DNA from: Candidatus Synechococcus spongiarum LMB bulk15M
GTDB lineage: Bacteria > Cyanobacteriota > Cyanobacteriia > PCC-6307 > Cyanobiaceae
DNA: 44,046 nt
Direction of reading: 5' to 3'
NCBI GenBank assembly: GCA_002018045.1
Contig: MWLD01000072.1
Coordinates: forward strand, 1,182-45,227
The notes beneath the pieces were generated by a model, which saw only the letters and a program-made list of their open reading frames with translations, did not search any database and was not told where the DNA came from. Each line of letters begins with the position of its first letter. Position 1 is the first letter of the stretch. Positions 1 to 4,988 of this stretch are shown here, one piece after another. A program made the position numbers and the translations under genes.

Positions 1-797
1 AACGGTCTCGGCACGGGACCACAACACCCAGGCGGAGAAGACGCCGTAGAAGAGAGTTTGCACCAGGGTGGAGCGGAAGAACCGGGCGCCTTTCTCCCCC
101 TCGAAGCGCACCCCCAGGCCTCCTCCAACGCTGACCGCACCGCCGCCAGTTGGGGGGCGTCCCCCGCCGTTTCCACCCGGGCCAGACCGTCGCGGGCATA
201 GGAGGCCAGCAGCCAGGCCAGATCCCCGGGTTCCGTCAGTGCAGCGCGATGACACAAGGCCCGGGCCAGGTATTCCCCCAGCCCGGCGCCGGCAGTGCGG
301 GCAAAGGCCTGTGGCTTTTCCAGTGCTTGCCAGAAGGCTTCGGCGCTCTCCGCCAGTTGGAATTTTTCCAGCTTGACGGGGCGGCCGGCGCTGTCCTCCC
401 CCACCAACACGAACTGGCGCAGGTTGGTGACCAACACCAGCCGGTAACGGTCCCAATAGCGACTCACCTGATCACTGGTTGCCGTGAGCCCTGCGTCATC
501 GTTGGCCCCTTTCACCTCCACCACGCCCCGCTCAGGAATCTGGCCCTGGCGGGGACGACCTTTCTGCACCTGCCTGGCTCCATACAGCCCGAAATCAGGA
601 TGGCCGGCGCCCTGGTTGGCCAGCTCGCCCACACAGAACACCCTGGGCTTCAGCAGTGCGCCCACCCCGTTGAGGAGAGTGGCCAGTGGACCGTAGCTGG
701 AGCGCTCGCCCGTGGCGCCGCCGGAGGCGCGCACACGGTGGAGTGAACCGCAATAGTCCTCCACCGCCTTTGCCAATTTGTCGCTGGTGGTTGTCAT
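1..797 (-). CDS. Type IIG/ISP-like restriction-modification fusion, N-terminal part, frameshifted
   Basis: The minus strand reads open from ATG at 797-795 to the left edge, so the gene is cut by the window. The first roughly 226 codons carry a PD-(D/E)xK-like nuclease signature: GHPDFGLYG near residue 65 and GVVEVKG near residue 92. Single-polypeptide restriction-methylase enzymes place such a nuclease before an N6-adenine methylase. Around 116-121 the frame changes. Before it the protein reads ALEEA; after it, in the neighbouring frame, it reads VRFEGEKGARFFRSTLVQT and then LFYGVFSAWVLW, which I recognise as the conserved segment just ahead of the methylase domain. One base appears missing beside a G5 run (C5 on the plus strand). 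This may be real inactivation, phase variation or an assembly error. The methylase motifs lie outside the window. Family call is fairly sure; exact type is inferred. Confidence 0.72.
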   Translation of the reverse strand, partial: MTTTSDKLAKAVEDYCGSLHRVRASGGATGERSSYGPLATLLNGVGALLKPRVFCVGELANQGAGHPDFGLYGARQVQKGRPRQGQIPERGVVEVKGANDDAGLTATSDQVSRYWDRYRLVLVTNLRQFVLVGEDSAGRPVKLEKFQLAESAEAFWQALEKPQAFARTAGAGLGEYLARALCHRAALTEPGDLAWLLASYARDGLARVETAGDAPQLAAVRSALEEAWGCASRGRKAPGSSAPPWCKLSSTASSPPGCCGPVPRP

Positions 798-979
798 GGT
801 CCGGGTTGTGGCCAAGCGGGGACCAGGGTGCAAAGGCCCATGGGGGTGGAGTGGTGCTGGTGGTGTGGAGCCATTGTGTCTGATGGGGTGGCTCGTTTTT
901 GGCGTCAACTGACGGGAATGTTTGGGAGACCGGTATTGACCCTGCTACGATGGAGCGAGCAACGTATCCGACAACCAGG

Positions 980-3739
980 ATGAGCAGACAGTCTTGGAAA
1001 TGGCCCGGTTCCCGCTGGTGGCGTGTTGATTTTCATACCCACTCGCCAGCCTCCTACGATTTCAACAGAAAAGAAGCAAATGCCGAGGATCATGAACGTT
1101 GGATCAAATGGATCACAGCAGCCCGTGATGCGGGTCTTGATGCCGTTGCGATTACCGACCACAACACAGCCGATGGAATCGAGCCCCTTCAGAAAGCTTG
1201 CTCACAAGTGGAAAATGCCCCTGTTCTGTTTCCGGGAGTTGAGATTACTGCCGGTGACGGATGCCACCTGTTGCTGATTATGGACCCGGATGATAGTCGT
1301 GATCACGTCAACGATTTTTTAGCTCGTGTGGGCATTACGCAAGAAACGCGCGGCAAACCAGAAGCGTATTCTTTACAGAGCGTTGAACATATATTAAAAC
1401 AATGTGACGATAATGTATTGATTTTAGGTGCTCATGTGAATAGTAAAGCTGCCGGTCTTTTGAAGTATGGAGGCCAGAAACGCATTGCCGAGTTGAATCA
1501 TCCCCGTCTGGCTGGCGTTGAAGTTGTCCCCGGCCAATGCGCAGAAGATGGGAAATTCCTTGCCCCCGAGGAGTATGAACCATGGCTTGATGGCAGTAAA
1601 CCAGAGATCAAACGCCGATTCCAGCCAGTGTGGTCATCCGATGCCCATCGCCTTGCAGATCTGGGCCGTCGCTGGACCTGGGTCAAGATGACCTTGCCAA
1701 CGCTGGAAGGCCTACGCTTGGCTTTGTTGGATGGGGATGGCTCTCTGAAGCCCTCGCAAGCCAAAGATGATCATCCCAATACGCCACCTGATCTGGCCAT
1801 TGAAAGCATCACAGTGGGTCAAGGAAAATTCATTGGTCGGCCTGAAGCAATAACCATCCCTTTAAATCCGTATCTAAACACAATTATTGGCGGACGCGGC
1901 ACTGGTAAATCAACCATTATCGATTTTTGTCGCATGACACTGCGACGGCAAGATGAACTTGGTAATCAGAAGAGAGAAGAACCCCTGAAAGATTCATTTA
2001 ATCGACGGATGAAAGTTCCGAAGGATCGAAAGGAAGCAGGGCTTCTTACACAACAGACAAAAACCGAAGTGGTCTACCGCAAGGACGGCCAGAGGTTTAT
2101 CCTCTCCTGGAGCCAGGATGGGTCCGCACGTTCCATAGCGCGTGTCAACGAGCAAGATCATAGCTCTAGTCCGGAAGAGGGTGATATTCGTGAGCGCTTC
2201 CCTGTTCGCATCTACAGTCAAAAACAACTGTTCACCCTGGCTCAAAATCCAAATGCGCTGCTCTCGGTCATTGATGACGATATCCCGACCCGTAGGGGCG
2301 AAATCAAGCGGAAAATTGAGGAGTTTCGTAATAGTTATCTGTTTCTGCGGGCAAGTGCCAGGGCAGCTCTGAAGCAATCAGAAGCCATATCGACATATGA
2401 AGGCTCATTGAGAGATGTGCGTCACAAGATCAATGTCCTCCAGGCTGGTAATCAGGCTCAAGTCATTAAACGACATCAACAGCTTCACAGCAAAGATAGT
2501 AGCTGGCAGCAGATCCTGGCGGCAGCTATGAATGCTATTGATTCCGTTAAATCGCAAGTCAGTGAATTAACGGTTGCCGATCTTATTACAGATGCTGCTA
2601 AAGATGATCAAGCCCAAGCAAGCCTTCAAAAAGTTCATGGGGAAATCAAAAAAACCATCAATCAACTTCGCCAGGATTTGAAGCAAAGAATTGATGTTGC
2701 TCAAAATGATATTGCACGAATTCAAGAAAGTGACGATGCAAAACACTGGCAAAATGAAATCATATCTATCCAGAAGAAATTAGCAGAAATAATGAAAAAT
2801 CTCACTCAGCAAGGTATTGCAAATCCTAATGAATATAGTGATCTCTTGAAAGTCTCAAAATCTCTTGAAGGAAAAATTCAAGACTGTAAGAATAAAAAAG
2901 AAGATGCAGAGAAATTAGAAAGGGATGCAGATAAAGTACTGAGAAATTATCGCGAATATCACATCAAGATGAATGAATTACGCCAGTCTTTCTTATTAGA
3001 AGTATCATCTAACAATGAGAATCTAATTAAAATCAAAATCAATCAACTTTCAAATCATGATAATCTTAGGGAACAAATCGGTGAAATTCTTGGTACCAGT
3101 GCATTTGAAAGAGATCGTGAAGAAATAGTCAAGAATATTGAGGGAGGTAATAGACAGTCATGGAGCTGGGAAAACTTGGATAAACTGATTACTGATATTC
3201 GCAAACTACCTGACCAGCAAATTTCATGGGACATTCAGGATAAGCGCTTCCTGGATTTTCTCCAAAAGTTGCCGCCTGAAAGAATTGATCGCTTAGCATT
3301 GTATTGTCCTGGAGATGAGGTGGAAGTGGAGTTCAGAGAAAAGAAAGTCGGCTCTTGGAAGTCACTACAACAAGGCTCACCCGGCCAGCAAGCTGCCGCG
3401 CTCTTGGCGTTTATCCTCGGACATGGCAAGGAGCCAATCATCATCGATCAACCGGAAGATGACCTGGACAATTCTCTGATTTATGAATTGTTGGTTCGTC
3501 GTCTTCGCGAGGTCAAGCAGCATCGCCAGGTCATCGTGGTGACCCATAACCCCAACATCGTCGTCAATGGCAATGCGGAGTTTGTGCTCTCACTCAAGGT
3601 GGAGTCGAGCCAAACCCGGATCGGTTGCTGTGGTGGGCTGCAAGACCAGTCTGTGCGAGACGAGATCTGCCGTGTGATGGAGGGGGGCCGGGAAGCGCTT
3701 GTGCGGCGCTATCAATGGATCCTGTTACCCGAGAGGTGA
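980..3739 (+). CDS. PHP-domain / SMC-like AAA ATPase (TrlF-like)
   Basis: Large protein, 919 residues from ATG 980; the frame is open further upstream, with an ATG at 950 and a TTG at 899. I prefer 980 because the PHP domain begins just after it. PHP phosphoesterase motifs are visible: VDFHTH (about 16-21), AITDHNT (57-63), GAHVNS (150-155) and SSDAHR (219-224), together supplying metal-binding His/Asp. An ABC/SMC-type ATPase follows: Walker A GGRGTGKST (304-312), a long coiled-coil middle (about 430-760), Walker B IIIDQPEDDLDN (820-831) and a THNPN switch (844-848). PHP plus SMC-like ATPase proteins are found in defence islands; my recollection is that similar proteins are named TrlF family. 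A nuclease or phosphatase controlled by ATP hydrolysis is inferred. It is followed after 4 bases by the AlbA gene, so they are probably co-transcribed. The coiled-coil part is AT-richer than its surroundings, suggesting acquisition. Confidence 0.8.
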   Translation: MSRQSWKWPGSRWWRVDFHTHSPASYDFNRKEANAEDHERWIKWITAARDAGLDAVAITDHNTADGIEPLQKACSQVENAPVLFPGVEITAGDGCHLLLIMDPDDSRDHVNDFLARVGITQETRGKPEAYSLQSVEHILKQCDDNVLILGAHVNSKAAGLLKYGGQKRIAELNHPRLAGVEVVPGQCAEDGKFLAPEEYEPWLDGSKPEIKRRFQPVWSSDAHRLADLGRRWTWVKMTLPTLEGLRLALLDGDGSLKPSQAKDDHPNTPPDLAIESITVGQGKFIGRPEAITIPLNPYLNTIIGGRGTGKSTIIDFCRMTLRRQDELGNQKREEPLKDSFNRRMKVPKDRKEAGLLTQQTKTEVVYRKDGQRFILSWSQDGSARSIARVNEQDHSSSPEEGDIRERFPVRIYSQKQLFTLAQNPNALLSVIDDDIPTRRGEIKRKIEEFRNSYLFLRASARAALKQSEAISTYEGSLRDVRHKINVLQAGNQAQVIKRHQQLHSKDSSWQQILAAAMNAIDSVKSQVSELTVADLITDAAKDDQAQASLQKVHGEIKKTINQLRQDLKQRIDVAQNDIARIQESDDAKHWQNEIISIQKKLAEIMKNLTQQGIANPNEYSDLLKVSKSLEGKIQDCKNKKEDAEKLERDADKVLRNYREYHIKMNELRQSFLLEVSSNNENLIKIKINQLSNHDNLREQIGEILGTSAFERDREEIVKNIEGGNRQSWSWENLDKLITDIRKLPDQQISWDIQDKRFLDFLQKLPPERIDRLALYCPGDEVEVEFREKKVGSWKSLQQGSPGQQAAALLAFILGHGKEPIIIDQPEDDLDNSLIYELLVRRLREVKQHRQVIVVTHNPNIVVNGNAEFVLSLKVESSQTRIGCCGGLQDQSVRDEICRVMEGGREALVRRYQWILLPER

Positions 3740-3743
3740 AACC

Positions 3744-4988
3744 ATGCAGGATGTTGACGCACTTGTGAAACGCATTCGCCTCGGCGAAGACGCTACGCTT
3801 GAATTCAAGCAGGTTCTCCTGGATGGGGACAAGGTGATTGGCCCCAAGCGCAATGCCTTTGCCGATGAATTGGCCGGCTTTGCCAATACCCGTGGTGGCA
3901 CCGTCCTGCTGGGTGTGGACGACAAGAGCCATGCAATTACAGGCATCCCCATTGAAAAACTGGATGCCGTAGAAAGCTGGGTGCAGGAGATTTGTAACGA
4001 CACCGTCAAGCCGCCACTGGACGCACTGATTCGCAAGATCTACCTGCCCGGTCCCGGTGGCGATGATGTGCCCATCATCCGTGTTGATCTATCCCGCAGC
4101 CTGTTCGTCCACAAAAGTCCAGGCGGATATTTCCGCAGGGTCGGCAGCGCCAAGCGGGAGATGGGCACTGACGTGCTGGCTCGGCTCTTGCAGGAGCGTA
4201 GCCAGAGCCGGGTGATTCGCTTTGACGAGTCTCCGGTCAGCAAGGCTTCCCCGGATTGCCTTGATGATGGATTGGTTCGCCGGTTCTTGCGACATGACGC
4301 TGTGGTGGATCTCGCCATGCTGCGCAAGCTGCGCGTCGTTGCAGACGATGAAAACGGCGCACCATGGGCAACCGTTGGCGGCATCCTCCTGTGTACACAC
4401 ACGCCGGAACAATGGTTACCCCAAGCACGGATTCAGGCCGTCAGCTATGCGGGGACGCGGCGGGATATCAATTACCAACTTGATGCACGGGATTGTGGAG
4501 GGCCGCTGGACCAGCAGGTGATTGAAGCGCTGCACTTTGCCTGCAGAAACATGCGGGTAGCGGCAAGTAAAGGCCTGGCCCGCCTCGACCGTCCCCAGTT
4601 CAGTGAACGCGCTCTTTTCGAGGCACTTGTCAACGCTGTGGCCCATCGGGATTACTCCATGGCTGGCGCCCGGATTCGTTTCCATCTATTCCAGGACCGC
4701 GTTGAACTCCATGTGCCAGGCGCTCTGGCCAATACGTTGACGCCAGACAGCATGGAGCTACGCCAGTACAGCCGCAACGAGTTGATCGTCTCTCTGCTGA
4801 CCCGCTGCCAGGTACCTGATCAGAGCGATGGCGCCCGATCCCACATGATGGAGCGGCGGGGTGACGGGGTGCCCATCATTCTAAACGATAGCCGGCAGCT
4901 TTCAGGACATACGCCTGAATATACTGTGATTGATGAGTCTGAGCTGCGGCTGATTATCTGGGCAGCTCAACATGAGGGTGAAAGATAA
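3744..4988 (+). CDS. AlbA_2 (Schlafen-type) domain plus GHKL-ATPase protein
   Basis: 414 residues. ATG 3744 is chosen over an upstream in-frame start at 3699 because GAGAGGTGA sits just before it as a ribosome-binding site and the upstream gene ends at 3739. The N-terminal AlbA_2/Schlafen domain is seen as EDATLEFKQV (about 13-22) and FANTRGGTVLLGVDD (about 46-60). The C-terminal half has the family's GHKL-like motif FEALVNAVAHRDYS near residue 295, with HRDY typical of this group. Such proteins are usually annotated as ATP-binding or putative transcriptional regulators, and the AlbA_2 domain is thought to bind or cut nucleic acid. Tight coupling to the PHP-ATPase and proximity to a restriction gene suggest a defence function, which is inference. 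Confidence 0.8.
   Translation: MQDVDALVKRIRLGEDATLEFKQVLLDGDKVIGPKRNAFADELAGFANTRGGTVLLGVDDKSHAITGIPIEKLDAVESWVQEICNDTVKPPLDALIRKIYLPGPGGDDVPIIRVDLSRSLFVHKSPGGYFRRVGSAKREMGTDVLARLLQERSQSRVIRFDESPVSKASPDCLDDGLVRRFLRHDAVVDLAMLRKLRVVADDENGAPWATVGGILLCTHTPEQWLPQARIQAVSYAGTRRDINYQLDARDCGGPLDQQVIEALHFACRNMRVAASKGLARLDRPQFSERALFEALVNAVAHRDYSMAGARIRFHLFQDRVELHVPGALANTLTPDSMELRQYSRNELIVSLLTRCQVPDQSDGARSHMMERRGDGVPIILNDSRQLSGHTPEYTVIDESELRLIIWAAQHEGER

What the first reader, a model, noticed from the sequence alone, without database searches (positions are those of the whole stretch)
980..4988. Candidate two-gene defence unit: PHP/SMC-like ATPase plus AlbA_2-GHKL protein
The sequence shows a PHP phosphoesterase with intact metal motifs fused to a complete SMC-type ATPase, followed after 4 bases by a Schlafen/AlbA_2 protein with a GHKL-like motif. 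Each family alone is known from defence settings. This pair as a unit, beside a restriction enzyme, is the best candidate here for an under-described system. Nuclease action and antiviral function are inference.
Basis: partly seen in the sequence, partly recalled or inferred. Interest (0 to 1): 0.7.

Follow-up and report, generated by a model that had tools for sequence, protein, structure and literature searches.

The report
TrlF–TrlG two-gene defence unit
In a picocyanobacterium, next to a DNA-restriction enzyme, sits an intact gene pair (a nuclease-plus-molecular-motor protein and a Schlafen-like protein) that belongs to a widespread conserved pair known so far only as a 'temperature restriction locus' of Photorhabdus, and that most likely works as an anti-phage growth-stop system.

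Summary
They are not nameless: gene 1 passes the NCBIfam cut-off for the TrlF family, sister of the anti-phage protein Ppl; gene 2 has the TrlG architecture. TrlF-TrlG is the published 'temperature restriction locus' of Photorhabdus. Of 76 scorable TrlF loci, 31 have a TrlG directly downstream (30 of 31 within 50 bases); partner distance matrices correlate at r=0.94. Neighbours are rich in BREX, type III/IIG R-M and other defence genes; enolase neighbourhoods in the same genomes are not. But TrlF also occurs alone in whole clades, as Ppl does. Most likely an abortive-infection-type unit: TrlF senses or processes DNA; TrlG, which keeps the Schlafen E-E-D triad, stops growth. Antiviral role and RNase activity are inference. 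In genus mates the module persists (dN/dS 0.21) or is deleted, as expected of island cargo. New reading of a known operon, not a new kind of system.

The parts
980..3739 (+). trlF: PHP phosphoesterase/nuclease domain (residues 12-262) fused to a complete SMC/Rad50-like ABC ATPase (271-901) with coiled coil (about 439-680)
   Evidence: NCBIfam NF045780 TrlF 553 bits, cut-off 350; Ppl model 432 bits, cut-off 1000; PADLOC Ppl 4.9e-104; motifs; structure
3744..4988 (+). trlG: SLFN_AlbA_2 domain (1-126) with Schlafen-type triad E15/E20/D60, linker, GHKL ATPase HATPase_c_4 (about 227-412)
   Evidence: Pfam; triad aligned to rat SLFN13 E205/E210/D248; structure
1..797 (-). N-terminal part of a divergently transcribed type IIG-like restriction-modification gene (continues beyond the window; frameshift near 110-120; scaffold gap just outside)
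   Evidence: N6_Mtase 3.6e-09, Eco57I 4.3e-06 on the contig-level frame; intact 1115-aa relative in G230 beside a TrlF remnant, further relative beside TrlF in G254
798..979 (.). intergenic region shared by the divergent restriction gene and trlF; no TrlR regulator gene of the Photorhabdus type
   Evidence: no TrlR match upstream outside pYR3

Best explanation
This is a TrlF-TrlG (TRL-type) operon acquired as cargo of a small defence islet. Shown: domain anatomy, intact motifs, conserved gene order, joint inheritance, defence-rich neighbourhoods. Inferred: TrlF, a PHP nuclease on a Rad50/SMC-like ATP-driven clamp (a one-chain analogue of Mre11-Rad50), detects or processes foreign or damaged DNA ends during infection and switches on TrlG; TrlG is the growth-stopping effector, using its Schlafen-type AlbA_2 domain (E15/E20/D60) to cut tRNA or other RNA under control of its GHKL ATP-binding domain, so that infected cells stop translating before phage is made. 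Confidence by step: it is a TrlF-TrlG unit 0.95; it serves defence 0.75; TrlG is an RNase-type effector controlled by TrlF about 0.45.
For: Identity. Conserved unit: 31 of 76 scorable TrlF loci have TrlG directly downstream, clustered on the tree, 30 of 31 within 50 bases; distance matrices correlate r=0.937 overall, 0.946 in the window's clade, 0 of 2000 permutations as high. Defence context: TrlFG lies between PglX and PglZ/BrxL in BREX islands L009 and L016, beside HmaA in L012, near BrxC in L049, with type III genes in L007; 363 summed PADLOC family hits among 147 neighbours against 35 among 132 enolase neighbours of the same genomes. Effector role of TrlG: in Photorhabdus all stable temperature-tolerant mutants whose lesion was found hit trlG and none trlF; 16 distinct trlG mutations, chance of none in the larger trlF about 5e-9 if both were needed (equal mutability assumed). 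Triad E-E-D in all 14 pairs of the window's clade. Schlafen and SAMD9 tRNase domains are structural matches. Selection: dN/dS 0.21 against G254.
Against: TrlF occurs without a neighbouring TrlG in many clades (45 of 76), and Ppl is a single-gene system, so TrlF may be effector by itself. The TRL paper does not mention phage. In the Photorhabdus-like branch (pYR3, L050, L057) the middle triad residue is Gln, so the growth arrest there may not be Schlafen chemistry. In G187 and G126 TrlF is wrecked, yet TrlG persists under purifying selection with E20 changed to Gly, so TrlG may have a role without TrlF or without that residue. AlbA_2 proteins with a GHKL domain are common in genomes and some are presumed regulators.
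Confidence: 0.5

Rival explanations
1. Ppl-like: TrlF alone is sensor and nuclease effector (PHP active site cuts phage DNA, Endonuclease Q/Mre11-Rad50 style); TrlG is an accessory regulator or silencer that adjusts its expression or activity.
For: Whole TrlF clades lack an adjacent TrlG, the nearest relative of the window's TrlF (35%) stands alone on Klebsiella-group plasmids beside a type II R-M, solo TrlF rides on phage-like elements, Ppl is named anti-phage, and the PHP domain best matches the DNA nuclease Endonuclease Q.
Against: Photorhabdus mutations that lift growth arrest are in trlG, none in trlF; the partners co-diverge strongly, more than an optional regulator would need.
Confidence: 0.27
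2. Toxin-restraint pair: TrlG is a constitutively harmful protein held in check by TrlF (as AriA holds AriB); heat or infection releases it.
For: Loss of trlG but not of trlF is selected at 36 C in Photorhabdus; where TrlF is wrecked (G187, G126) TrlG has lost triad residue E20; AriA is a sequence and fold match to TrlF.
Against: TrlG-like proteins with an intact triad occur without a neighbouring TrlF (six unpaired copies; 59 of 386 cyanobacterial genomes have a TrlG-like gene, only four have TrlF over cut-off); the E20G case is a single event. WonAB shows that ATPase-effector pairs need not work by sequestration (PMC12137116).
Confidence: 0.13
3. Stress-growth control locus (temperature restriction) that sits in defence islands but does not act on phages.
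For: The only experiment on a TRL operon found here shows a temperature phenotype and heat induction (PMC7554251).
Against: Patchy presence and plasmid, phage and BREX/R-M contexts across phyla, Ppl kinship; heat-triggered arrest could be a side effect of an abortive system (inference).
Confidence: 0.1

Closest known systems
Temperature restriction locus trlR-trlF-trlG of Photorhabdus laumondii (also Vibrio anguillarum and Yersinia ruckeri pYR3)
   Same: Same two proteins in the same order: TrlF (annotated histidinol phosphatase/TrlF family ATPase) then TrlG (AlbA_2 plus HATPase_c_4), nearly overlapping genes
   Different: No trlR regulator beside the window pair; TrlF 20% and TrlG 25% identical to pYR3, a different branch of the tree; TrlG triad E-E-D here, E-Q-D in pYR3
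Ppl (anti-phage polymerase/histidinol phosphatase-like protein, single gene)
   Same: PHP plus SMC-type ATPase over the full length; Ppl model 432 bits, PADLOC 4.9e-104
   Different: Below the NCBIfam Ppl cut-off of 1000 bits; has a TrlG partner
Schlafen-histidine kinase RNases linked to BREX (Nucleic Acids Res 2026, PMC12839542)
   Same: TrlG has this domain order; some TrlFG pairs lie inside BREX loci
   Different: The paper's text does not mention a PHP-ATPase partner; no BREX genes were seen in the window
PARIS (AriA-AriB) and WonAB
   Same: Work-alike logic: ABC ATPase plus a growth- or translation-stopping nuclease in two genes; AriA is a sequence and fold match to the TrlF head
   Different: AriB is Toprim (own knowledge) and WonB PD-(D/E)xK; TrlF has an added PHP nuclease domain

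Membership tests
TrlF family (NCBIfam NF045780) | Full-length match over the curated cut-off of 350 bits | tested here: met
   553.5 bits, residues 37-939 of the long frame
TrlF family (NCBIfam NF045780) | Intact PHP metal site and ABC ATPase motifs | tested here: met
TRL operon (trlF-trlG) | trlF followed directly by a SLFN_AlbA_2 plus HATPase_c_4 gene on the same strand | tested here: met
   4-base gap
Photorhabdus-type TRL (three genes) | Upstream trlR regulator gene | tested here: not met
   no match upstream of trlF; TrlR was found beside no other pair except pYR3, so it marks the Photorhabdus-type locus only and the window pair is not filed under that type
Photorhabdus-type TRL (three genes) | TrlG-dependent growth arrest at raised temperature | not testable with these tools
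   needs an experiment
Ppl (NF042955) | Equivalog cut-off of 1000 bits | tested here: not met
   432 bits: sister, not member
Schlafen-type RNase | Three catalytic carboxylates at the spacing of SLFN13 E205/E210/D248 | tested here: met
   E15/E20/D60 by alignment and fold
Schlafen-type RNase | tRNA/rRNA cleavage | not testable with these tools
   needs purified protein
BREX accessory | Lies within a BREX gene cluster | tested here: not met
   sampled genes of the window beyond 9 kb are housekeeping; met in relatives L009, L016

The most novel reading that the evidence does not exclude
TrlF-TrlG is an unlisted, phylum-spanning two-gene abortive-infection system in which a one-chain PHP-nuclease/Rad50-like DNA sensor triggers a Schlafen-type tRNase with a kinase-like switch, and the Photorhabdus temperature restriction is heat-triggered misfiring of this immune system.
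Probability: 0.35. Interest if true: 0.7.

Novelty: new variant of a known kind. Interest (0 to 1): 0.45.

Why it matters
It ties an orphan phenotype (heat-triggered growth arrest in Photorhabdus) to a widespread defence-associated gene pair, and links a known single-gene anti-phage protein (Ppl) to a probable partner effector related to animal Schlafens. Both claims become directly testable in one phage-challenge and TrlG-mutant experiment.

Tried and rejected
Chance adjacency: rejected; TrlG-like genes number from one to about 18 per paired genome, giving well under 1% chance per neighbour against 31 of 76 seen. Partner swap for the window (its TrlF groups with the solo plasmid TrlF L085 at support 94): not upheld, holding it with the paired clade is not rejected (AU p 0.47). 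A trlR gene upstream: not found. Flanking repeats marking a mobile element in the window: none. Literature: no paper in the held library was found that treats TrlF-TrlG as phage defence; search by the name Ppl gave only a table entry. The plasmid rows had to be left out of the structure alignments. Whether the genus is the sponge symbiont Candidatus Synechococcus spongiarum was not tested.

Full report
Observation. Gene 1 has every PHP metal residue and every ABC motif; its AlphaFold model (pLDDT 84) aligns over residues 12-262 with PHP enzymes, best with the DNA repair nuclease Endonuclease Q (Z 20.0, 223 residues, rmsd 3.2), and over 271-901 with SMC and Rad50 heads (5xei Z 19.7; 4ncj Z 18.6). 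Gene 2 (pLDDT 90) aligns over 1-126 with the catalytic lobes of SLFN11/13/14 (Z about 11, rmsd about 3.1), with the SAMD9 tRNase domain (Z 10.1), over 227-412 with GHKL kinases, and over its whole length with DIP2311 (Z 22.9).

Identity. NCBIfam names gene 1 as TrlF family ATPase (553 bits, cut-off 350); it is below the cut-off of the sister model, the anti-phage protein Ppl (432 of 1000), and PADLOC's best match is Ppl (4.9e-104). Gene 2 has SLFN_AlbA_2 and HATPase_c_4, the architecture of TrlG. TrlR-TrlF-TrlG is the temperature restriction locus of Photorhabdus laumondii (PMC7554251), with syntenic copies reported in Vibrio anguillarum and on Yersinia ruckeri pYR3; the pYR3 copy was read here. 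So the pair is known as an operon, though that paper never mentions phage.

Is it a unit? A scan of GTDB genome contigs with TrlF alone returned 80 loci. With the window and annotated plasmid and phage loci, 76 full-length TrlF genes have enough downstream sequence to score; 31 have a TrlG directly downstream, same strand, same order, 30 of them within 50 bases, median gap 3. The trait is clustered on the TrlF tree in several clades (8 changes against 25 for shuffled labels), while other clades, and the Klebsiella-group plasmid TrlF that is the window's nearest relative at 35%, stand alone. Pairwise distances of the two partners correlate at r 0.937 (0.946 within the window's clade; 0 of 2000 permutations as high). 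Thus TrlG is a frequent, co-inherited, but not obligatory partner.

Is the context defence? Among 147 neighbours of 29 paired loci PADLOC gives 211 and 152 family matches at 1e-10 in two batches, led by PglX, PglZ, BrxL, HEC-02A/B, AbiLi, type IIG, type II/III methylases and DrmD-like helicases. Among 132 enolase neighbours from the same genomes it gives 35, mostly methylase models that one protein each matches, and Cas6. PADLOC models overlap one another, so these are relative, not absolute counts. In L009 and L016 the pair lies inside a BREX locus (PglX, then TrlF-TrlG, then PglZ and BrxL), in L012 beside HmaA, in L049 near BrxC; in L007 TrlF and TrlG alternate with SNF2 helicase and type III Mod/Res genes. 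In the window the neighbour is a divergent type IIG R-M gene; the genes sampled from the rest of the window are housekeeping.

The window's own kin. In 299 genomes of the order only three, all of the same genus and counting the window's own, have a close TrlF. G254 has the same layout, with the R-M gene 79%, TrlF 83% (dN/dS 0.21) and the TrlG tail 86% on another contig. G230 keeps the R-M gene next to a TrlF stump that ends near residue 80, followed by unrelated genes. In another genus of the family (G126, G187) TrlF is reduced to a PHP stub plus the C-terminal tail, frameshifted in G187, but TrlG is intact, under purifying selection (dN/dS 0.145 between the two), and has lost triad residue E20. 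Over the phylum, TrlF above cut-off is in only 4 of 386 genomes while TrlG-like genes are in 59. This is the gain-and-loss pattern of island cargo.

Mechanism. TrlG carries E15, E20 and D60, which align with E205, E210 and D248 of rat SLFN13, each needed for full RNA cleavage (PMC5862951). All 14 pairs of the window's clade keep E-E-D; the pYR3 branch has E-Q-D. In Photorhabdus, growth arrest at 36 C is lifted by mutations spread over both domains of TrlG, none in the larger trlF; if both genes were needed and equally mutable, finding none of 16 distinct mutations in trlF has a chance of about 5e-9. This makes TrlG the growth-stopping part. TrlF, a PHP nuclease on a Rad50-like clamp, is the natural sensor; its coiled coil is its fastest part (15% identity to the clade against 53% for the C-terminal head). 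The order of events, the trigger and the RNA target are inference. The main rival is that TrlF is itself the effector, as Ppl must be.

Verdict. Observation confirmed; interpretation partly supported and sharpened. Known operon, known families, shown here to be a conserved, defence-associated pair over many phyla and found in a picocyanobacterium.

Noticed in passing
window 1-797 (-), continuing into G000:C41:1-1181: Type IIG-like R-M gene carries a frameshift near window position 110-120 relative to relatives (intact 1115 aa in G230), and a scaffold gap lies just before the window start, so its activity is uncertain.
   Followed up: partly
L151 (G254:C140) 185-347: A 163-base piece of the R-M gene (94% to G254's own copy) lies just behind the end of trlG, a possible recombination scar.
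   Followed up: no
L154 (G187:C1) and L155 (G126:C139): TrlF has lost its ATPase but the adjacent TrlG is intact and under purifying selection with E20 changed to Gly: TrlG seems to keep a role without TrlF or without that residue.
   Followed up: partly
L009 and L016, around TrlF: TrlF-TrlG is embedded in a BREX operon between PglX and PglZ/BrxL, with a second Schlafen-GHKL gene upstream in L009.
   Followed up: partly
L020 1-12048: TrlF without TrlG lies between what looks like a type III R-M pair and sbcD-sbcC-like genes (by eye from the translations), hinting at a link to DNA-end processing.
   Followed up: no
L007 2247-13575 (Xanthomonas): Order SNF2 helicase, TrlG, type III Mod, TrlF, Res: the two partners are split but kept in one cluster.
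   Followed up: partly
L088 (Microcystis phage Mwe-JY31) and L087 (Yersinia phage vB_YenM_42.18): Phage records carry a divergent solo TrlF-like gene.
   Followed up: no
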